A stretch of DNA of 64,000 nucleotides, from the NCBI GenBank assembly GCA_026770025.1, contig JAMXDE010000020.1, positions 744,001 through 808,000 of the forward strand, given 5' to 3'. Under the pieces are notes generated by a model, which saw nothing but the letters and a program-made list of their open reading frames with translations, had not been told where the DNA came from and made no database searches. Shown in pieces: positions 5,146 to 51,810 of the stretch (the stretch's first letter is position 1; the number at the start of each line of letters is the position of its first letter). This DNA is from Craspedostauros australis. Taxonomy: Eukaryota > Bacillariophyta > Bacillariophyceae > Mastogloiales > Achnanthaceae. A program made the position numbers and the translations under genes.

Positions 5146-6417
5146 ATGCATCAAAAGAAGATGATTGGTGCCATCTGCATCGCGTGCATGTTGGTGGCGA
5201 CGAACTCACTATCATCACCATCCCCGTCGTCCCCGTCGTCCCCGTCATCCTCGCTCCAATGCAGCAGTAACAGCAGCAGCAATGGGAATGGGAATGGGAA
5301 TGAGAATCACCAACCAATACGGAAGATCGCAATCATCGGCGGTGGCATCGCCGGTCTCTCCTTGGCGCATGCCTTCGACAACAACAACGGCAACGATGCA
5401 CACAACATTCATGTGACATGCTTCGATGCGAGACCAGAATTGGGCGTCGTCGCAGGTGCGGGTGTGCAGCTCAACAGCGGCATGGCAGTGCTGAAGCAGA
5501 TCTATCCGTCCCTGCAGCATGCGGTGGCCGATGCCGCGCTGCCGTTGACGACCGTGCGATCCAAGACCACCAACTGGATCTCATCCAACAAGGAGTTCCA
5601 ACTGCTGCACTTCAATCTCAGACAGATGATCATGGATGCAGAGCGACACCACAACGAAAGCGCTGATCCAGGAGGAAGGCGAGGTCATGGCGTACCATGC
5701 TCCATCATGCGAAGAGCGTTGCAGGAGGCGCTGCTGGAGGAGCTGAAGACGACGCCCGTGCATCTTGGCAAGCAGGTGATGAATGTGGAATGTGACAAGA
5801 CGGAGGCGCGAGATGCCATCCATCTCGGGTTTGAAGATGGAACGAGAGAAGAGCCGTACTGGTACGATATGGTGGTGGGCTGTGATGGTGTCAACAGCGT
5901 CATCGAGCAGTACATCAACGGCGATGCGCGGTCGCCATCAGACAATCAACGCAATTCACCAGCTGTGAACTCTGGTATCCGCATCCGGTACGTCATCCAG
6001 GATGTCGCCAAAGAGGACAGCGACAGCAACAGTGGCAGCAGCAGCGACGACGGAACGAACAAAATGACACAAGATTCCGTCTTGCAGCAATTCTTTGGCA
6101 ACGGCGCCTACTGCCTCACTGGCAACTACGGCCAGGTTATCAAACACGACACCACCAGAGACTGCTTCATCATCTTCCGCAACGCCTTGCCCTTCTCCAA
6201 GCCCGCCGTCAGAAAGGACGATGAGAACGTCGCTTGGAAGGCATCATCCGAGGCCGAACGCATCCAGCAACAGGTACGACAGCAGATCGATGATGCCACC
6301 AACCACAACACGCAATCACAATCACCCAGCCATCTCCCTTGTTCCATCCTACTCATACTCGTCACAACACACTCACATGCACCAGAGTATCAATACTATC
6401 TTCATGAGACGTTCTAA
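5146..6417 (+). pseudogene. C-terminally truncated FAD monooxygenase, cassette copy 2 (423 aa frame)
   Basis: The protein begins MHQKKMIGAICIAC and keeps the N-terminal FAD-binding motif GGGIAGLSLAHAF and the VGCDGVNS (DG) motif. After QQIDDA it diverges from the intact paralogue and ends about 40 residues later. It therefore lacks the second FAD/ribityl-binding motif (GDAAHAMPPFLGQG) and the whole C-terminal third. Alignment with copy 3 shows a deletion of about 607 bp between two GCCA tetranucleotides (kept GCCA at 6295-6298), which also removes the stop and the 3' flank. In addition a +1 and a +5 insertion between about 5641 and 5705 garble some 20 residues before the frame is restored. 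The frame is still open, but an active flavoenzyme is unlikely. Confidence 0.8.
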
Positions 6418-6542
6418 GTACTCCACGAGCAGAGTATTCCAAAGCTATGTCGGATCGCATCAACCATCGATGTGTCTTTCTTTTCCACACAACAAGCAGA
6501 AGCACCATCAACTTGGACGAGCCGATCCGCTCTCTTGTCATC

Positions 6543-7859
6543 TCATGTCCGCTTCAACATCTCACTGCCCTGCAACAGAAGATGGAAAGTCTCGTTCATG
6601 GGATCCATGGGACCCATTGCATGCATTGTACCACGACGTTTGCTTGTTCTCGTCAGCATCTGCCCAAACAGAGCCAGCGGCCGCGGCCATGTTGGAAGGG
6701 AACACAGCGCTGCTCTCATCTCGTTGTGATAATTTCGCCGCAAGATACGTTTAACAAGTGTCTTGTACACACGAGCATGTTCGTTGGGCAGGGATAGACC
6801 ATTGTGGAGATAGGTGAGATTGGTAGTTTCCTCCAAGGCTTGCTGAAGTGCTTCCATTTGTGCCGAGAGGGTCTCAGGCGGAACCTCAAACATGCCGGGA
6901 TTCCAGAAGCCTCCGTATCTGAGATATGACAAGCTCTTGTTTCCCAGGAGCGATATCAACGCATCGAACCTTGTCATCTGCCCTTGTCGCGATACTCTGT
7001 TCCAAACATCGGCAACCCCAAGCTTCTTCAGGTGTGATGCATCTGAAAGGAGTTTGATGATCTGCTCGGTTTCTTGTGAATGGATGTGTTGGGCGCCGTG
7101 GACCAGACCGAGATTGATCTTGAGCTTGTTGATGCGCTTGTTTGACTGGAATAGCTTTGCCAAGCTATCACAAGTGATACGGGTGCCAAAAAATGATACT
7201 TCGGTGACGCTGCAATTGTTTGGAGACAGCCATCTGCACAAATCAGCGCCCCCATTGGCGAGCTCACAGGAATCAAACTTAACCCACTTCGAGTTTTGGG
7301 AGATGTTGAACATGAGCTTGTCGCAATCAACAAGATCACATGAACCCAAATGCACATGATGTGTCACAAGAGGGATATCGTGGAGCTGCTTCATCTCCAC
7401 GAAGCATTGACGCAAGTGGATGCCTTCGTCGAATACAGATTTGGGTGGGTATTTGGCAGCCAATCGAAGTACGAAGCGAATCGCTTGCTTGTCTTCTTCT
7501 CCGAATTGGTCATCGTCGCCGAATTCCAGATTCAGGGACCGAATACGCATCCGCCTATGCCTCTCGCCAAGCCAATCGCTCAGTAGAACACGAGGTGATA
7601 AAGCAACGTTCTTGTGCCGCCGCTTCATCGATTCCAAGTCAGCAAAGGTGAATCCTGCTTCAATGGCCAAGTCCCAATATTCCATCCGCTTGGGTGTGAC
7701 ACTGTAGCAGTAGATCTGTTCTGCGTGTGGGTACTGCGGAGCGAACACGGTCTTCGGTGGCAGCTCTTTTTCATGGAGTTGTTTCCAGAAAGTCTTGAAG
7801 TCTGGATCATGGTCACTGTTGGCATTGGTGTTGGCGTCACCATGCATGTTGAAAGCCAT
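6543..7859 (-). CDS. LRR-like protein, cassette copy 2 (438 aa)
   Basis: This is a paralogue of the genes at 2711-4066 and 10822-12150: intronless, same orientation, and open over its full length. It shares DHDPDFKTFWKQLH near the N-terminus and the SCDLVDCDKLMFNISQNSKW segment, and ends in GSEMLKRT. LRR-like hydrophobic spacing is visible through the middle. The ATG is at 7859 (MAFNMHGDANTN). The first three residues differ from the other copies, while the following NANSDHDPDF is common, which supports this start. The 3' end lies only 125 bp from the truncated monooxygenase, closer than in copy 3 because of the deletion there. Function unknown. Confidence 0.8.
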   Translation of the reverse strand: MAFNMHGDANTNANSDHDPDFKTFWKQLHEKELPPKTVFAPQYPHAEQIYCYSVTPKRMEYWDLAIEAGFTFADLESMKRRHKNVALSPRVLLSDWLGERHRRMRIRSLNLEFGDDDQFGEEDKQAIRFVLRLAAKYPPKSVFDEGIHLRQCFVEMKQLHDIPLVTHHVHLGSCDLVDCDKLMFNISQNSKWVKFDSCELANGGADLCRWLSPNNCSVTEVSFFGTRITCDSLAKLFQSNKRINKLKINLGLVHGAQHIHSQETEQIIKLLSDASHLKKLGVADVWNRVSRQGQMTRFDALISLLGNKSLSYLRYGGFWNPGMFEVPPETLSAQMEALQQALEETTNLTYLHNGLSLPNEHARVYKTLVKRILRRNYHNEMRAALCSLPTWPRPLALFGQMLTRTSKRRGTMHAMGPMDPMNETFHLLLQGSEMLKRT

Positions 7860-43837: not shown

Positions 43838-43840
43838 CAG
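43838..43840 (+). repeat. Target-site duplication CAG, left copy
   Basis: CAG lies immediately outside the left terminal repeat and is matched by CAG at 50899-50901 immediately outside the right terminal repeat. A 3-bp duplication is typical of PIF/Harbinger elements. Confidence 0.75.
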
Positions 43841-43864
43841 CAAGGCACGGGAAAAACGTTGAAA
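43841..43864 (+). repeat. Left terminal inverted repeat, 24 bp
   Basis: Begins CAAGGCACGGGAAAAACG and ends TTGAAA. It is the exact reverse complement of 50875-50898. Beyond 24 bp the two ends diverge. Confidence 0.9.
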
Positions 43865-44004
43865 GTGGGTCCGGACGACGTACAGACTGCTCCGAACAGA
43901 CATGTTCGGTTTGTCGCATCTGTGGGCTCCATCGAGTCAACCGCTGAGCAATGGAAGACGGTGAATACAACGTTAAGTAGACGTTATAAGCGTTAACGTC
44001 GATT

Positions 44005-44186
44005 TTATTACTTTCATTGAAACGCTATTACTTTCATTGAAACGCTATTACTTTCATTGAAACGTTATTACTTTCATTGAAACACTATTACTTTCATTGA
44101 AACGTTATTACTTTCATTGAATCGTGATTACTTTCATTGAATCGTGATTACTTTCATTGAATCGTGATTACTTTCATTGAAACGTC
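44005..44186 (+). repeat. Left subterminal array of a 20-bp repeat, nine copies
   Basis: Unit ATTACTTTCATTGAAACGCT and variants (AACGTT, AACACT, ATCGTG), in exact 20-bp register from 44011 to 44180. Each unit contains TTTCATTGAAA, an 11-bp palindrome around a central T. There are no spacers. The likely role is a cluster of binding sites for a transposon protein. Confidence 0.9.
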
Positions 44187-44449
44187 ATCGTGACACTTCC
44201 ATTGAGTGATCGTTGCAGTCCATGTATTCGATTTACGTCACACAGAGCGATTCGTGTTTCGTTCCAGGCTTCACGCACGTGTTGATCACACGAACACAAA
44301 TCACAATGTAAGCATGCAATGCACGAGTATTGTCCACAGCAATTCAACAAATACTCTCCAACTCGGTCAAGGATTTGTCAGAAACAGCCAAGGTAGGCTT
44401 ACAGATACCTATTATATTATTAACAGGACATCTGTTAGTATCGCTGTCA

Positions 44450-44923
44450 TCATTTTGCCTTCTTTTTGTCCTTCCTCCGTTGTTGCCAATACAACGACTC
44501 GTACTTCCATCGCTTTGCTGCATGAAAATGCTTCCTAAATTGTTCCATTGGGAACTCTTGATAGCACGGTCTCCTTTGGTACAGCTGTCTGGGGGTGAGA
44601 GACTTCAATAGTTCATCTTTGAAGTCGCTTCTCATCATGTTCTGTGCTTCAGAACCATCCCATCTCAGTTTGCCAGTCGGCTTCAAAGTAATTGTCATTT
44701 TCTTGAAAGCAGCGAGTGCTTTCTCTGCATCGGCAGCATCTGCTTCATTTTGCTTCCACTTTTTCCGAAGGCGATTCAAATTGCTGCGAAAGTTGGTGTA
44801 GCTCACATTTGCAAATTCAGCGTGGCTTTCGTAGATCTCCTTTGGTTTCATTTCTTGTGTAATGGTCCCTGCCTTCAATTCCTCCTCCAGGATCTTTTTT
44901 GCATCAGCCCATTTGAACGGCAT
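44450..44923 (-). CDS. Transposon accessory protein with two related W/Y-rich helical domains, putative DNA-binding (157 aa)
   Basis: Starts [19 protein letters not shown]. Two domains of about 50 residues look homologous. The first has [29 protein letters not shown] and NLNRLRKKW. The second has [38 protein letters not shown] and KHFHAAKRW. The shared pattern is P-x-x-[IL]-Y-x-x-x-x-x-[FY]-x-x-[FVY]-x-x-x-x-F-R, then a basic helix. The protein is strongly basic and ends KDKKKAK. In PIF/Harbinger elements the second gene encodes a Myb/SANT-like DNA-binding partner of the transposase; this gene is the best candidate for that job, although it is not a textbook SANT domain. The frame stays open upstream to 45400 through a hexamer satellite, so an SA-repeat extension cannot be excluded. 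Confidence 0.65.
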
Positions 44924-45450
44924 CTTTGTTGATGTTGATGTTGATGCTGATGCTGATGCTGATGCCGATGCGGATGCGGATGCTGATACTGATGCGGATG
45001 CTGATACGGCGGCGGATGCGGATGCTGATGCCGATGTTGATGCTGCTGCGGCCGTTTCTGATACCGATGCTGATACCGATGCTGATACCAATGCTGATAC
45101 CGATGCTGATACCGATGCTGATACGGATGCCGATGCGGATGCTGATACGGATGTGGATGCTGATACTGATGCGGATGCAGATACCAATGCGGATGCTGAT
45201 ACGTCGGCGGATGCGGATGCTGATGCTGATGCCAAAGCTGATGCCGATGTTGATGCTGCTGCGGCTGTTTCTGATACCGATGCGGATGCTGATACGGATG
45301 CGGATGCTGATACCGATGTGGATGCTGATACCAATGCGGATGCTGTTACGGATGCTGATGCGGATGATGATACGGATGCTGATACCGATGCGGATGCCAA
45401 TGCGGATGCTTATGCAGATGCTGATGCAGATGCAGCCGTTGGAGATGCCG
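44924..45450. repeat. GATGCT/GATACC hexanucleotide satellite inside the transposon
   Basis: About 0.5 kb of imperfect 6-bp units (GATGCT, GATACC, GATGCG, GATGTT). Because the period is a multiple of three, several frames are open on both strands (SASV/SASA on minus, DADADT and MLMRML on plus). It sits directly upstream of the accessory-protein ATG, in the spacer between the two divergent transposon genes. Confidence 0.85.
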
Positions 45451-46108
45451 CTGCTATTGCCGCTGATGATGATGCTGCTGATACCGTCGCTGTTGCTGAT
45501 ACCGTCGCTGTTGCTGATACCATCGCTGATTCTGCGGCAAAGCTCCTTCAGGCGTTACCACATGCGCTGATACGAATGCTGGTATGTAGTGTTGTGGAAG
45601 TTGTTGTGGCGGATACTGTTGTCATTGCCGTGGTCTCGTTGTTATCTGTTGATGTGCAAGTTGAGCTGTGTTCAGTTGTGTCGGATGAGACAGTCATGCC
45701 CTGCTCGCCGCCTCCCTGTTGCAAATGGGTCCTCTGCTGTCCCTGTTGCTGTTACCATCAGCATTGCCATTGGTTTGGGTCCGCGTGGCTTGTATTCCGC
45801 AGTTGATTGATCTATTAATTGACTCATCGAGGGCTGCCGTTGCCTGCGGTGTTCTCAGAATCTCTTGTTTGTAGTTGTTGCCGTTGCAGTGTTCGTTTGT
45901 TGTTCTAAATTGGTGGGACTGTGGCTGTGCTCATCCTCGACTGTGGGAGATTGTGTGGAATTGCCATGAGTTTCGTCCTTGGGTGTTGTGTGTGTGTGTG
46001 TCGCGAGGCTTCGGCAATGACGCCACCTATCTCGATTGGTCGTGTGAGTTCGCCCAAAATGGAAAATGTGTGTTCGCCCTTCATCCGTCGTCACAAAACA
46101 AAACAAGG

Positions 46109-47968
46109 ATGAGCAACCAAGCCACCAACACCACTGCTTCTGGTACTCCTGGATCGCGTCTCCCTCGTGGAGCAACTCCCACACGCTCAAATTCAAAATC
46201 GATGCGACCGGAAGTCGACATCGCCATCTTGGACTTCCTCCTTGGCGCAAGGCGCTTCGATACATTCAAACGGCACTGTGACGAGTTTGAACATCTCCTC
46301 GGCAAGGCTGGTTCTGCGCAGCGAGACGCCAGCAGACAACGAAAGTACTACCTTCAAAAGTACCTCGACAAGGCAGGGCTACAAGCATTGCGGACAACTC
46401 TGCAACAATCATTGAGTGGGAATGGTCCGAAACCAACATGTGCAGCCACAACACCCAACACAAACTCAAAAGCTGCAGCTCTCATAACCCCATCAACATC
46501 GACATCCACGCTCTCGCCACAACGACAACGCAAAATCCTCTTCTCTGCTGAGACCAAAATGACGACCAATGACGAAACCAGCACAAGTGTCACCGAAATC
46601 GAAGAAGGTGAACACTACAACATCGACCTCGATCGTCCATTCCACCATGTGGAAAGCACCATGATCTACCAAATGGATGATGTGATCCTCGAAGGTCGAT
46701 CATTTGACTGTCTCGTCATCCGCAAGTTGTTCGTCGACAAAGACGATATCGAGGAAATCAAGGCCTCCATCTGTGAGGGCGGCACTTGCATCAAGATAAA
46801 GGAACCAGCAATCCCATCGTTGATGCTGGAGACGAGCACAGACGCCATGTTCGGCCAGAAGAAGGGGGTGCCCGATGCCAACCTTGCAAGGGAGAAGCTC
46901 CTTTTCCACAAGTTGGTCAACCGCGAGACCACGAGGGGAGTCGGCTCGAAGTATACATACTTCCATTGCCCAGAAGGAATGACCCTCTCCGCCAACTTCT
47001 TTCAAAATGAGGCTGAGTGCCTCACGAAGACATACTGCCCAACACCAAAGGTGTTGGTTCACAAGGCAACAAAGGCGCAGCTCAAGATTCCAACAAATGT
47101 GGTCTGCTGGAGAGTTGCCATCGATGGATTTCATGGCAGGGTTGGTCTCAGCAGCAATGACACCGAGAATGTTGATGACGCATTCTTTGGCATGTTGACT
47201 ACCACTGGTGAGTAGCCATCAAGATCACCGACTCCCTTTCAATTTACTTGCATTGAGTATGATCATGCTGAATCAACTAATACTCACTACTGTAGACGAC
47301 CTACTAACAATCCACACTGATTCTGTCTCTTCTACTTCGTCCAAACAACTCAACACATAGCAAACATGACCATCGGGGCTAGCAGTTGCGATACCATGGA
47401 CGTCGAGGCCCCAACACCGTCCACAGCTCGTTCTAGCATCACTACCAACAAACCTGTTGCATACGGAGGGGAAGCCGTGACCCCTTGCATGGTCGAGAGC
47501 AACCATGGGGTTGTGCACAACCTAAATCCTCTCCCAGCGGTTCAGGATCCCGGATTGGACGGGCTGAACTACCCGGACGTCCCAAAGTCTGCATTGGACG
47601 TTCCCCTCCCTGGTCAGGATGGATTGGATGAGTTGAACTTTCCTGATGTCCCATCATCCGCGGTGGACCTTGTTGATTCCAACCTGCTTGTCTTGGCCAC
47701 AGGCGCAACAATCCATCGCGAAGTTGTTGCTTGTGCTGGTCCTCCAGATGCTGCTGCCCTCGTGGTTCATGCAAATGACGCTGTCATGGGCGACGAAGGC
47801 CATCACCTGAAGCGCGCAACACTTGGGACCAGCGGAAGCACCCCAAAGAAGATGAAGTCTGCAGCAGATGGCGAGCCAACGATCGCAGATGGACCTGACC
47901 TGGAGCAGTCACCAGATTCCTATGATTTCGATGACAGCGCCGATGATCCTCTCTCTGAGTACTTCTAA
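46109..47968 (+). CDS. Transposon-borne protein of unknown family (568 aa, two exons)
   Basis: Exon 1 is 46109-47207 and exon 2 is 47361-47968, joined across a 153-nt intron (donor GTGAGT, pyrimidine-rich tract TCTGTCTCTTCTACTTCG, acceptor CACATAG, phase 1). The sum is in frame (1,707 nt). The start is the first in-frame ATG (MSNQATNTTASG). Residues about 32-95 form a basic helical block (RPEVDIAILDFLLGARRFDT and RQRKYYLQKYLDKAG). Residues about 165-365 look globular (FDCLVIRKLFVDKDDIEEIK and CWRVAIDGFHGRVGL). Exon 2 is acidic, with a doubled motif GLDGLNYPDVPKSALD / GLDELNFPDVPSSAVD and the C-terminus DDSADDPLSEYF. No known family is recognised. An alternative acceptor at 47295 would end the protein after 387 residues. 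Confidence 0.7.
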
Positions 47969-48030
47969 GATGGCAATATTGACAGATAAGAGTACAGGAA
48001 TGACTTGCTCTAATAGTATTTAGGAATGAT

Positions 48031-49998
48031 TCATATCTCAAATATAGGATGCCCGTTGTCCAGCTCGTATTGAATCAATACACAGCAGGCTTCAAAAACA
48101 CATTGATGCTTCTCAATATCATTCCGATAGTCATGCACCAGCGCCTTGAAGTTCTTTATTCTCCCATTAAAACTCTCGTGTCGAGCCCTTGCTCGATTCT
48201 TGAACTTTTTCACAGCAGCAGAATCGAGTGGATTAGGAGCACTGATGGTGGGCTCATTGCGATATCCGCCATCAGCAATTACCATTCCTCCTGGTGGCAA
48301 TTTGCTCTTGAGGCCATCAGACTTGCGATACATCACGAGGTCTGATGTTGACGCAGGGAAGGGGCCGTTGATCCAAACAAGCTTGCTGTCTGCAAGTGAT
48401 ATGCCAAGCTCATATGTGAGCCCTGCAGAGTGGGACTTGTGGCTGTACCACTTTGTTCCAGGATCAGTTCGAGGCTCGTGGATCTTGATGTGGACCCCAT
48501 CAACACTGATCAGGAAGTGCTTGTCATCGGTAGACAGTTCAACATTGTGTGGAGGCCAGATGACCTGAGAGAGTAAATGCAAAAGAAACGAGGAGCACCA
48601 GACAACTTTGTGAGCATGGAGCATGATGGGAAGTGGTCTCGGTTGTGCACAATAACTTACCTTGTTCGGGAGTAAGGCTTGGATCGCTGGCAGATATGAC
48701 CAGACGAGAGACCGGATGGTTTTCTCATCCAAGCCCCACCGGCCTGCCATGACATGCTCTGTATTGTATGCCTTGAGCCAATTCAACACAACAAATGCAT
48801 TGTATGGACGCGGCTGTTTCACTTTGTGTTCTGTCTCGATGTTGGACAAATCAACAAGGAGACAGCCGAAGCTCTCTGGGCTCACGCCATACATTGCGGA
48901 AAACCGAGATTTTCTTGTTCGTTCCGCCATCCTGGTCTGACGGAAGCCTGCATAGTGGAGGCCAAGCTCCAATATCTCATCACAAGACAAAAAATTGACT
49001 TCGGTTGCGTTGGTGGTTGCGTAGTTGCTAGTTGGATGTGTTACTTGGTGTTGGCGTTGTGCTTGTTGCTGCCTGCCTCCGATGGCATTTTGCCTTGCCA
49101 GCCTGCTCCTTTGTTGGATGCTGGGCAAATCGGCCAGTTGCGCGCCTTGGTGACTGCTTCCTTTGCTGGTGGGTTGCTTTGCTGATGTTCCCCTTCGTCG
49201 GATGATCGAAGAATTGGCCAGCTGTTCTTCGCATTGGCCGATTTCTCTGCTGGTGGGTTGCCTATCCGAGCTGCTCCTTTGTTGGATGCTTGGCGAATCG
49301 GTTGGCTGTGCTCCTCTGCTTGCAGGTTGCCTTGCCAACCTGCCCCTTCGTTGGATGCTTGGCAAATCGGTCACTTGCGCTCCTTGGTGACTGCTTCCTC
49401 TGCTGGCATGTTTCCTCACCGATCTGCTCCTTCGCTGGATGATCGAAGAATTGGCCAGCTGTTCTTTGTGTTGGCCGATTCCTCTGCTGGTGGGTCGCCT
49501 ATCCAAGCTGCTCCTTTGTTGGATGCTTGTCGAATTGGTTGGCTGTGCTCCTCCTCTGGCAGGTTGCCTTTCCAATCTGCTCCGTTGTTGGATGATGGGG
49601 AAATTGGCCTGCTGTTTGTTGCATTGGCTGCTGCCTCCACTGGCAGGTTGCCTTTCCAATCTACCCCTTCGTTGGATGCCTGGCGAATCAGTTGGTTGTG
49701 ATGTTCGTTGGCTGCTTCCTCCGCTGGTGGGTTGCCTTGCCGAGGTTCCCCTTTGTTGGATGATTGAAGAATTGGCCAGCTGTTCTTCACGTTGGCCAAT
49801 TCCTCTGCTGGTGGGTTGTCTATCCAAGCTGCTCCTTTGTTGGGTGCTTGGCGAATCGGTCGGCTGTGCTCCTCCTCTGACAGGTTGCCTTTCCGATCTG
49901 CTCCTTTGATGGATGATGCGGAAATCGGCCTGCTGTTTGTTGTGGTTGCTGCTGCCTCCACTGGCAGGTTGCCTTGCCAACCTGCCTCTTCGTTGCAT
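48031..49998 (-). CDS. PIF/Harbinger-like DDE transposase with an Arg-rich repeat N-terminus
   Basis: The C-terminal half is a DDE_Tnp_4-type nuclease: first Asp in ISVDGVHIKIHEPR, the Harbinger-like G-x-x-P-A-x-x-x-D segment (GPFPASTSDLVMYRK), second Asp in VIADGGYRNE, and Glu in RARHESFNGRIKNF (about residues 468, 544 and 576 after splicing). A 96-nt intron (48660-48565, donor GTAAGT, acceptor CTCTCAG) is a multiple of three and stop-free, so it is invisible as a frame break; splicing gives PNK^VIWPPHNVEL. The N-terminal 300 residues are tandem Arg/Gln-rich units such as SIIQQRSSLDRQPTSRG. The frame continues upstream past the chosen ATG to a TAA that is a C-to-T change of a conserved CAA in the repeat. 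A short frame at 50478-50293 (MARRFPPRLNLV) may be the original N-terminal exon. Confidence 0.8.
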   Translation of the reverse strand: MQRRGRLARQPASGGSSNHNKQQADFRIIHQRSRSERQPVRGGAQPTDSPSTQQRSSLDRQPTSRGIGQREEQLANSSIIQQRGTSARQPTSGGSSQRTSQPTDSPGIQRRGRLERQPASGGSSQCNKQQANFPIIQQRSRLERQPARGGAQPTNSTSIQQRSSLDRRPTSRGIGQHKEQLANSSIIQRRSRSVRKHASRGSSHQGAQVTDLPSIQRRGRLARQPASRGAQPTDSPSIQQRSSSDRQPTSREIGQCEEQLANSSIIRRRGTSAKQPTSKGSSHQGAQLADLPSIQQRSRLARQNAIGGRQQQAQRQHQVTHPTSNYATTNATEVNFLSCDEILELGLHYAGFRQTRMAERTRKSRFSAMYGVSPESFGCLLVDLSNIETEHKVKQPRPYNAFVVLNWLKAYNTEHVMAGRWGLDEKTIRSLVWSYLPAIQALLPNKVSYCAQPRPLPIMLHAHKVVWCSSFLLHLLSQVIWPPHNVELSTDDKHFLISVDGVHIKIHEPRTDPGTKWYSHKSHSAGLTYELGISLADSKLVWINGPFPASTSDLVMYRKSDGLKSKLPPGGMVIADGGYRNEPTISAPNPLDSAAVKKFKNRARARHESFNGRIKNFKALVHDYRNDIEKHQCVFEACCVLIQYELDNGHPIFEI

Positions 49999-50290
49999 GC
50001 TTGGGGAATTGGCTGATTGTTCTCCTTGCTGGCTGCCTCTGCTGGCAGGTTACCTTGCCGAGCTTCCCCTTTGTTGGATGATGGGGAAATTGGCCTGCTG
50101 TTTGTTGTGTTGGCTGCTGCCTCTGCTGGCAGGTTGCCTTGCTGACCTGATCCTTTGTTGGATGATTGGGAAATTGGCCTGCTGCTCGTTGTGTTGGCTG
50201 TTTCCTCTGATGCTGGGCTTGTTGCTGCTTGCTGGTGTTGATAGCTGCTTGGTTCCTCCCTCCTGTACTTGTTGGACTGTTCCTCTGTTG
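49050..50290. repeat. Minisatellite encoding the transposase N-terminal repeats
   Basis: About 1.2 kb of related units, roughly 80-100 bp long and variable in length. They contain alternations of (plus strand) TTGTTGGATG, GGCAGGTTGCCTT and TTGGCCTGCTG. On the minus strand they read as Arg/Gln/Ser-rich repeats. Unit boundaries are approximate. Confidence 0.75.
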
Positions 50291-50504
50291 AATCATTGGG
50301 AGGTCAACAGGGTGGTTGACTCCTTGATTGCTCTTCTTGGTTCTTTTCTCTTTGAGATGTCGGCGTCTCGGCGAGTTGTTTGTTGACGAGCGCCAAATTC
50401 GCGTTGTTTGGAATCAGCGCGAATCCAGCCTGAGCTTGATACGACCAGATTTAGTCTTGGTGGGAACCTGCGAGCCATGATTTTTGTCGTTGGATCTTGG
50501 TGCG

Positions 50505-50722
50505 ACATTACTTTCATTGGAACGTCATCACTGTCATTGGAACGTCATTACTTTCATTGAAACGCTATTACTTTCATTGAATCGTGATTACTTTCATTGA
50601 AACGCTATTACTTTCATTGAAACGTTATTACTTTCATTGAAACGCTATTACTTTCATTGAAACGTTATTACTTTCATTGAAACGTTATTACTTTCATTGA
50701 ATCGTGATTACTTTCATTGAAT
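50505..50722 (+). repeat. Right subterminal array of the 20-bp repeat, eleven copies
   Basis: Same unit and same strand orientation as the array at 44005-44186, in 20-bp register from 50511 to 50720. The two outermost left copies are diverged (CTTTCATTGG, CTGTCATTGG). The array stops about 178 bp from the right transposon end. Confidence 0.9.
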
Positions 50723-50874
50723 TTCTATTCAGGGCTCGGTGTTCGTTTTTCAAACCAATAAGCGTTATAGACGTTAAAGACAAACATGTGGTTCAATCAA
50801 TCGAGTCGTGTAGTCTATCACTGTCGTTCCTCATTGACAGGGGGTCGTACTGGTCATGTGCACTTGGAGTCGTG

Positions 50875-50898
50875 TTTCAACGTTTTTCCCGTGCCTTG
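50875..50898 (-). repeat. Right terminal inverted repeat, 24 bp
   Basis: Plus-strand reading begins TTTCAACGTTTTTCCC and ends GTGCCTTG. It is the exact inverted copy of 43841-43864. Confidence 0.9.
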
Positions 50899-50901
50899 CA
50901 G
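50899..50901 (+). repeat. Target-site duplication CAG, right copy
   Basis: Matches 43838-43840 and abuts the right terminal inverted repeat. Confidence 0.75.
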
Positions 50902-51042
50902 ATACCAAACCATCTCAACGCAAGCACTGCGACCCATACGAGCCACATCACTCCACCAGCACTCTACTTTCTCGTATTGTAGCTATTGAACTGTTGAACT
51001 GTTGAACTGTTGACTCACAATTAGATTTGGAGTTTGGAAAAG

Positions 51043-51810
51043 ATGGCACGCATGAGACCCACGATCATTCTGTTTGGTGATTCCATCACCCAACTCTCGT
51101 TCGGCGAGGCTGGCGGGTACGGTTGGGGGTCGCTGCTGTCGTCTTCGTACCAGCGACGCGCGGATGTCATCAATCGCGGATTCAGCGGATACAACACGAA
51201 CCTTGCCATCGATCTCATTCCCAAGGTCTTCCAGAAGGAGGATGCTAGCAGCAGCAGCAGCAGCAGCAGCAAGGTGCTGTTCTGCACACTCTTCTTCGGT
51301 GCCAACGATGCCTCCATCGCTACAGAACCGCAGCACGTCCCTCTCGACACCTACAAATCCAACGTCCGCAAGCTGATCACCATGATTCGAGAGCAAACGG
51401 CATCCTCGCCGCCGTTCCCCATCATCCTCATGACGCCGCCACCGTTGGACGACAATGCCTGGAAGGCATGGCGGGAAATCGACTACTGCTGCCGCACGAA
51501 CGTCCGGGCACGCGAGTACGGATTGGCCGCGCAATCCATCGCGCAGGACACTGAGAACTGCTACTGCGTCGATACCTGGAAGGCGTTGGGCGGCGATGGG
51601 CCGGTCAGTGAGTACGGCAAGCACCTCAGCGATGGTCTTCACCTCTCGAACAGCGGCAACGAGCTGATCTACGAAGCCTTGATGGCGTTGCTGCGCAAGG
51701 AGTTGCCAGACCTCGCACCCATGGAGGATGGATTCGGCAAGCACGGGACGACGGGCATCCCAGAGGAAGAAGAGCTGTGGCAGGATATTTTTGGTATCAA
51801 GCTCGAGTGA
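51043..51810 (+). CDS. SGNH-hydrolase, isoamyl acetate-hydrolysing esterase 1-like (255 aa)
   Basis: A small cytosolic esterase of the GDSL/SGNH family, closest in layout to yeast IAH1. All four blocks are visible: GDSIT with nucleophile Ser14 (block I), NRGFSGYNT (block II Gly), FFGANDAS (block III Asn), and SDGLHLSNSG (block V Asp and His). The order and the length of about 250 residues are those of IAH1-like proteins. The start is the first ATG (MARMRPTIILFGDS); no signal peptide is present. A Ser run (AGC repeat at about 51247-51270) interrupts an otherwise conserved region. The start is only 142 bp from the DNA transposon, so the promoter may include transposon sequence. The substrate is probably short-chain acyl esters. 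Confidence 0.88.
   Translation: MARMRPTIILFGDSITQLSFGEAGGYGWGSLLSSSYQRRADVINRGFSGYNTNLAIDLIPKVFQKEDASSSSSSSSKVLFCTLFFGANDASIATEPQHVPLDTYKSNVRKLITMIREQTASSPPFPIILMTPPPLDDNAWKAWREIDYCCRTNVRAREYGLAAQSIAQDTENCYCVDTWKALGGDGPVSEYGKHLSDGLHLSNSGNELIYEALMALLRKELPDLAPMEDGFGKHGTTGIPEEEELWQDIFGIKLE

What the first reader, a model, noticed from the sequence alone, without database searches (positions are those of the whole stretch)
43841..50898. A 7-kb PIF/Harbinger-like transposon with three genes and perfect ends
The sequence shows exact 24-bp inverted ends (CAAGGCACGGGAAAAACG...), a 3-bp CAG duplication on both sides, and three genes between them. Known PIF/Harbinger elements carry a DDE transposase and one Myb/SANT-like partner. 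Here there is also a 568-residue spliced protein of no family I recognise, plus two tandem arrays placed symmetrically about 170 and 178 bp from the ends. The whole arrangement suggests a distinct lineage of element in this alga, probably mobile until recently.
Basis: partly seen in the sequence, partly recalled or inferred. Interest (0 to 1): 0.9.

Follow-up and report, generated by a model that had tools for sequence, protein, structure and literature searches.

The report
Three-gene jumping DNA in a diatom
This is a mobile DNA element of a well-known cut-and-paste kind that, besides its usual two genes, carries a third gene of an unknown family which has stayed intact in many related copies in this diatom's genome.

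Summary
Window 43841-50898 is a complete transposon: perfect 24-bp inverted ends, CAG on both sides, three genes, two subterminal arrays of a 20-bp unit. Of 24 loci scanned, 17 hold a two-ended element; all 17 have matching 3-bp flanks, 16 CWG and one CCG. Empty sites were found for 4 of 6 insertion sites searched whole. Two copies at different sites are 99.84% identical. The transposase matches DDE_Tnp_4. The third gene (568 residues, one intron) is the novelty: no significant match in Pfam, NCBIfam, PDB or 5.8 billion proteins, yet 14 loci in this genome, dN/dS 0.09-0.31 for exon 1 in 28 of 28 pairs, and distant homologues in the same slot of two further lineages. It looks like an old component of one large Harbinger clade. 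Verdict: a new variant of a known kind, a CWG-targeting, NuwaI-like PIF/Harbinger element with an accessory gene of unknown family; the accessory's function is inferred. The 'SANT' partner matches no Myb/SANT profile; it is a duplicated ~46-residue unit.

The parts
43838..43840 (.). left target site duplication CAG
43841..43864 (+). left TIR, 24 bp, CAAGGCACGGGAAAAACGTTGAAA
   Evidence: similar ends in other copies
44005..44185 (+). left subterminal array, 20-bp unit, about 9 copies
44450..44923 (-). SANT-position gene, conserved core (157 aa); two copies of a ~46-aa unit; frame open upstream to 45400 through a (TGATGC)n repeat
   Evidence: no Myb/SANT Pfam match
46109..47207 (+). third gene, exon 1 (366 codons + 1 base)
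   Evidence: dN/dS 0.09-0.31
47208..47360 (+). third gene, putative intron (GTGAGT...TAG), similar splice signals in relatives
   Evidence: (read by eye)
47361..47968 (+). third gene, exon 2 (acidic C-terminal part), stop included
   Evidence: dN/dS 0.37 in the one pair measured
48031..49998 (-). DDE transposase ORF (PF13359); triad in the exon 48031-48564; repeat-rich N-terminal part
48565..48660 (-). putative in-frame 96-bp intron of the transposase (GTAAGT...CTCTCAG)
   Evidence: read by eye from the printout
50507..50721 (+). right subterminal array, same 20-bp unit and orientation as the left array, about 11 copies
50875..50898 (-). right TIR, 24 bp
50899..50901 (.). right target site duplication CAG

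Best explanation
A complete, probably autonomous cut-and-paste DNA transposon of the PHIS superfamily (PIF/Harbinger with its Nuwa-type relatives) with CWG target sites. The DDE transposase cuts at the TIRs and inserts at CWG, copying those 3 bp (ends, duplication and empty sites shown; catalysis inferred from the conserved DDE triad). The duplicated-domain protein in the SANT slot most likely binds the transposon's subterminal DNA, as the Myb-like protein of zebrafish Harbinger3_DR does. The third protein is most likely an accessory that works with the other two, perhaps coating the 20-bp arrays and helping to build the end complex, or opposing silencing. That last step is inferred from conservation, purifying selection and gene order only.
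For: Ends and flanks; 17 of 17 two-ended elements among 24 loci scanned have matching 3-bp flanks, 16 CWG and 1 CCG. Empty sites without net gap for L009 (99% over 160 bp), L012 (99% over 158 bp), L013 (99% over 161 bp) and L025 (98% over 128 bp). Copies L025/L026: 99.84% over 6361 bp, at sites with CTG and CAG. Four short copies without intact genes (L010-L013) have the same internal deletion, element about 1-650 joined to about 6382-7058, at four sites, so the ends seem to be moved in trans. PF13359 at 60.5 bits against a cut-off of 24.8; D, D and E aligned in 15 of 15 elements. Third gene: 14 loci, all 14 with the SANT-position gene on the same contig (13 within 3 kb, one 17 kb away), 13 of 14 with the DDE ORF (12 within 3 kb, one 8 kb away); exon 1 dN/dS 0.09-0.31 in 28 of 28 pairs; homologues in lineages b and c (hhalign 97.5%; 92.1% and 95.2%; unrelated controls 0.2%).
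Against: No expression, binding or excision data. No empty site was listed for the window copy itself. Third-gene dS between window and C22 copy is 0.12, so this copy is not among the youngest. Direct comparison of lineage b with lineage c third proteins failed (2.6%). The third gene is less constrained than its neighbours (SANT-position 0.05-0.16, DDE exon 0.01-0.09 where a ratio could be had; exon 2 of the third gene 0.37 in one pair). Four related Harbinger elements (L055-L058, fetched in part) gave no third-gene match, so not all Harbingers here need it.
Confidence: 0.7

Rival explanations
1. The third protein is a regulator of the host's silencing of the element (anti-silencing or chromatin factor), not part of the transposition machine, like the silencing regulator of plant Vandal elements (VANC, name recalled) or the SET/TET enzymes carried by some Harbinger-type elements.
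For: Such accessory genes in transposons are documented (Vandal, HarbingerS with SET, PHISTA with TET/JBP; PMC12730594, passages). The third gene lies on the strand opposite to both other genes, so it has its own transcript.
Against: No chromatin-enzyme domain found.
Confidence: 0.3
2. The third gene is a captured host gene or passenger, not a functional part of the element.
For: No known domain; weaker constraint than the two other genes.
Against: All 14 loci listed have the SANT-position gene on the same contig; homologues sit in the same slot in three lineages; dN/dS below 0.32 in 28 of 28 pairs. No free-standing copy was listed.
Confidence: 0.05
3. It is a wholly different superfamily that happens to resemble Harbinger.
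For: CWG flanks instead of TWA; no Myb/SANT profile match; third gene.
Against: PF13359 well above cut-off; 109 of the 120 listed database relatives of the DDE profile carry PF13359; CWG is the published NuwaI target (PMC4482050).
Confidence: 0.05

Closest known systems
NuwaI group of the PHIS superfamily (Han et al. 2015, PMC4482050; abstract, passages and section 7 seen)
   Same: CWG target duplication; DDE transposase plus one small partner gene; lineage c ends begin GGAC (GGGAC if the duplication is cut one base earlier), near NuwaI's usual GGG start (read by eye).
   Different: NuwaI was reported from 16 animal genomes only, with two ORFs, average ~4.5 kb, TIRs usually starting GGG. Here: a diatom, ~7 kb, TIR starts CAAGG, third gene, partner without a recognised Myb/SANT domain.
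Canonical PIF/Harbinger (Harbinger3_DR; rice Ping/Pong recalled)
   Same: PF13359 transposase, TIRs, 3-bp duplication, partner gene, non-autonomous deletion copies.
   Different: Canonical target is TWA; most autonomous candidates have two ORFs (PMC4482050); no third gene.
PHISTA and HarbingerS (PMC12730594, passages seen)
   Same: Harbinger-type elements with an extra gene; PHISTA has three proteins and lies near or inside the Nuwa lineage with weak support.
   Different: Their extra genes are TET/JBP or SET enzymes; PHISTA has TA duplications. No such domain was found in the third protein here. PHISTA's own third protein was not compared.
Harbinger4_TP (named in PMC12730594; that TP stands for Thalassiosira pseudonana is recalled)
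   Same: By that paper in the sister lineage of the TET-bearing Harbinger families, with a 3-bp duplication.
   Different: Gene content and sequence not seen; may or may not carry a third gene.

Membership tests
PIF/Harbinger (PHIS superfamily) | DDE_Tnp_4 transposase with D, D, E | tested here: met
PIF/Harbinger (PHIS superfamily) | TIRs and 3-bp target duplication, single copy in empty sites | tested here: met
Canonical PIF/Harbinger group | TWA target | tested here: not met
   16 of 17 CWG, 1 CCG; TWA definition from PMC4482050
Canonical PIF/Harbinger and NuwaI | second ORF with Myb/SANT domain | tested here: inconclusive
   no Myb/SANT Pfam match in 9 members; duplicated unit; a diverged trihelix cannot be excluded without a structure
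NuwaI | CWG target | tested here: met
   lineage c copy on C65 CAG on both sides, and one CTG end each seen in L044, L043 and L062 (read by eye)
NuwaI | TIR usually starting GGG | tested here: not met
   CAAGG
NuwaI | two ORFs | tested here: not met
   three genes
NuwaI | transposase groups with NuwaI in a tree | not testable with these tools
   no Repbase sequences at hand

The most novel reading that the evidence does not exclude
A large clade of CWG-targeting Harbinger elements in diatoms is defined by a third, previously undescribed protein family that is an obligate part of the transposition complex and works through ~20-bp same-orientation subterminal arrays; one sub-lineage adds a fourth, KOW-like gene.
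Probability: 0.3. Interest if true: 0.7.

Novelty: new variant of a known kind. Interest (0 to 1): 0.5.

Why it matters
Harbinger elements are described as two-protein machines, a transposase plus a Myb-like helper. A family with a third, conserved protein of unknown fold, in many copies of which some are nearly identical, offers a natural system to ask what extra parts a cut-and-paste transposon can use and why. It also extends CWG targeting, published as NuwaI from animals only, to a diatom.

Tried and rejected
Judged unlikely: third gene as a host passenger; third gene restricted to the window's own family. No relatives in IMG/VR of the third protein, the transposase or the SANT-position protein. 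Led nowhere: PDB sequence searches, best E 0.5; phage DNA search, no match. L058's extra ORF shows no detectable relation to the third protein (0.2%).

Rows dropped: 6 of 21 DDE pairs (those with L042) are an artefact, because a stop in that stretch shifted the codon alignment; 7 of the other 15 DDE pairs and 10 of 21 SANT-position pairs have saturated dS and no ratio; some third-gene pairs have dS above 2. Inverted-repeat search for the ends of lineages b and c found none; comparing two copies showed some ends. Whether lineages without a third gene have such arrays was not decided, as their ends were not found.

Empty sites: 11 joined sites were prepared. Searched whole: window, L009, L012, L013, L025, L026; in part: L010; not searched: L011 (a few trailing bases apart), L016, L017, L041. 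Found for L009, L012, L013 and L025. Only the best candidates were scored (40 of 115 and 40 of 101), so the misses do not show absence. One search scored 122 of 413 candidates; a DDE missing from its list is no proof of absence either. Not decided: which of two right ends belongs to L027 (both CAG); presence of the trio in other diatoms.

Full report
OBSERVATION. The element runs from 43841 to 50898. Its ends are identical over 24 bp, and CAG stands on both sides. Arrays of a 20-bp unit lie at 44005-44185 and 50507-50721; the 13-mer ATTACTTTCATTG occurs 9 times in the first and 10 times in the second, always on the + strand, and nowhere else in the 64-kb window on either strand. Similar splice signals stand at the same place in relatives of the same lineage.

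HOST. The window lies in a 74.8-Mb genome of 90 contigs. It has 32 matches of at least 760 bits, among 88, to the silicon transporter family PF03842, which is over its cut-off in none of 14 control genomes, so it is very probably a diatom. The species is not known to me.

MOBILITY. A search with the left 260 bp found 96 matches; 20 regions chosen from them were fetched. In 24 loci scanned for the ends (window, L009-L028, L041, L042, L045), 17 hold an element with two inward-facing ends; all 17 have matching 3-bp flanks: 16 CAG/CAG or CTG/CTG, one CCG/CCG (L027 has two possible right ends, both CAG). Of the other seven, L014, L015 and L021 show ends of one direction only (flanks CTG, AAG twice, TTG), L024 has two outward-facing ends of two elements (CAG each), and L020, L042 and L045, fetched in part, show none. 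I joined the flanks of 11 insertions and searched six of these sites whole: empty sites of equal length, without net gap, appeared for L009, L012, L013 and L025 at 98-99% identity; none was listed for the window copy or L026 (which scored 40 of 115 and 40 of 101 candidates). L025 and L026 are 99.84% identical over 6361 bp with no gap, at sites with different flanks and duplications. Four short copies of about 1.3 kb (L010-L013) have the same internal deletion at four different sites. Movement, also of copies without intact genes, is therefore well supported, and recent for some.

TRANSPOSASE. PF13359 (DDE_Tnp_4) matches at 60.5 bits (cut-off 24.8). The D, D and E are aligned in 15 of 15 elements compared. 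A profile of five DDE proteins finds 195 database relatives at E <= 1e-5; 109 of the 120 listed carry PF13359, and two are named from the diatoms Fragilaria crotonensis and Epithemia clementina.

SANT-POSITION PROTEIN. No Myb/SANT match in Pfam in any of 9 members; the weak matches listed are to other families. Its two halves are related to each other (hhalign 87%, E 4e-6): a duplicated unit of about 46 residues. Calling it Myb-like rests on position only.

THIRD PROTEIN. A search of the genome with exon 1 gives 19 matches at 14 loci. All 14 have the SANT-position gene on the same contig, 13 within 3 kb and C11 17 kb away; 13 of 14 have the DDE ORF, 12 within 3 kb and C1 8 kb away, C43 none listed. 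dN/dS of exon 1 is 0.09-0.31 in 28 of 28 pairs of 8 copies (some with dS above 2); it is 0.05-0.16 for the SANT-position core (11 of 21 pairs with a ratio), 0.01-0.09 for the DDE exon (8 of the 15 usable pairs), and 0.37 for exon 2 of the third gene in the one pair measured. So the third gene is constrained, but less than its neighbours. In lineage b (transposase 51% identical) five intact copies have a third gene in the same slot, matched to the window's by BLAST (E 4e-6) and by profile (97.5%). In lineage c nine loci at 90-100% and ten at 24-33% have one, with three further marginal matches; of these 19 loci, 15 have a DDE match within about 4 kb. Lineage c is matched to lineage a by profile comparison (92.1%, E 6e-7; 95.2%, E 2.5e-8, when the lineage b member is included) and by HMM (E 7e-9 on L042; the reverse search gave only E 0.004 and 0.014). 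Direct b-to-c comparison gave only 2.6%. Unrelated controls gave 0.2%. In the DDE tree the 11 elements with a third gene (L059's by a weak match, E 2e-5, on a long branch) and the 4 without (L055-L058) fall on two sides of a branch with support 100/99; rooting is by midpoint only, and the four were fetched in part. No significant relative was found in Pfam (one of 8 members matched DUF2718 at E 0.29), NCBIfam, PDB or two searches of 5.8 billion proteins. Those searches need shared short words and predicted proteins, so unannotated or spliced eukaryotic copies can be missed.

SHARED ARCHITECTURE. Lineage c has its own 21-bp array (CCCGACATTCCCGACAAAACA) near both ends, again in one orientation, ends beginning GGACAC[T/G]CGGC with CAG on both sides of the C65 copy, and CTG at the right end of L044. 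Lineage b ends begin [G/C]ACCGTCCGG next to CTG, seen at one end each of two copies (read by eye). Lineage c also has a fourth gene on the minus strand, 36% identical between L044 and L046, weakly KOW-like in L046 (E 0.17), and its transposase is turned round relative to lineages a and b.

COMPARISON. Canonical PIF/Harbinger elements duplicate TWA and mostly have two ORFs; NuwaI duplicates CWG, has two ORFs, TIRs usually starting GGG, and was found in 16 animal genomes (PMC4482050: abstract, passages and section 7). Three-protein Harbinger-type elements are known in rust fungi (PHISTA, with TET/JBP), and SET-carrying HarbingerS in oomycetes (PMC12730594, passages). The Harbinger3_DR Myb-like protein binds a 9-bp subterminal motif and is needed to bring the transposase to the nucleus (PMC9710019, passages). 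Ectocarpus Harbingers have two genes (PMC12477816, passages). Ten literature queries gave listings and passages in which I saw no third protein like this one; one search listed 15 of 128 papers. Repbase itself and most subscription papers were not searchable.

MECHANISM. Shown: ends, CWG duplication, empty sites, movement of copies without intact genes, constraint on the third gene. Inferred: catalysis by the DDE protein; binding of the arrays by the SANT-position or third protein; accessory role of the third protein in transposition (my first choice) or against silencing (second). The 20-21-bp period, about two DNA turns, would put repeated protein contacts on one face of the helix; this is a suggestion only.

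Noticed in passing
G000 genome-wide: 32 matches of at least 760 bits (of 88) to the silicon transporter family PF03842, far more than the few that I recall for diatoms (not checked).
   Followed up: no
L044:3447-4028 and L046:3035-3754 (minus strand): A fourth gene in lineage c Harbinger elements, 36% identical between the two, weakly KOW-like in L046.
   Followed up: partly
L022 (C78:89300-99100): An 8-kb segment bounded by the same TIRs with CCG on both sides, holding a second array near its middle and an ORF that by eye looks like an unrelated transposase; perhaps a nested or composite element.
   Followed up: partly
window 51034-51810: A GDSL lipase/acylhydrolase ORF starts about 136 bp beyond the right end, so the insertion may sit near its promoter.
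   Followed up: partly
L059 (C21:36500-43000): A related Harbinger whose transposase and SANT-position ORFs run into long His/Arg/Pro/Ser repeats lying in 150-230-bp inverted arms.
   Followed up: no
L058:5-751 (minus strand): A long ORF without Pfam match beside the SANT-position gene of a Harbinger without a detected third gene; no detectable relation to the third protein. Other Harbinger lineages here may have their own extra genes.
   Followed up: partly
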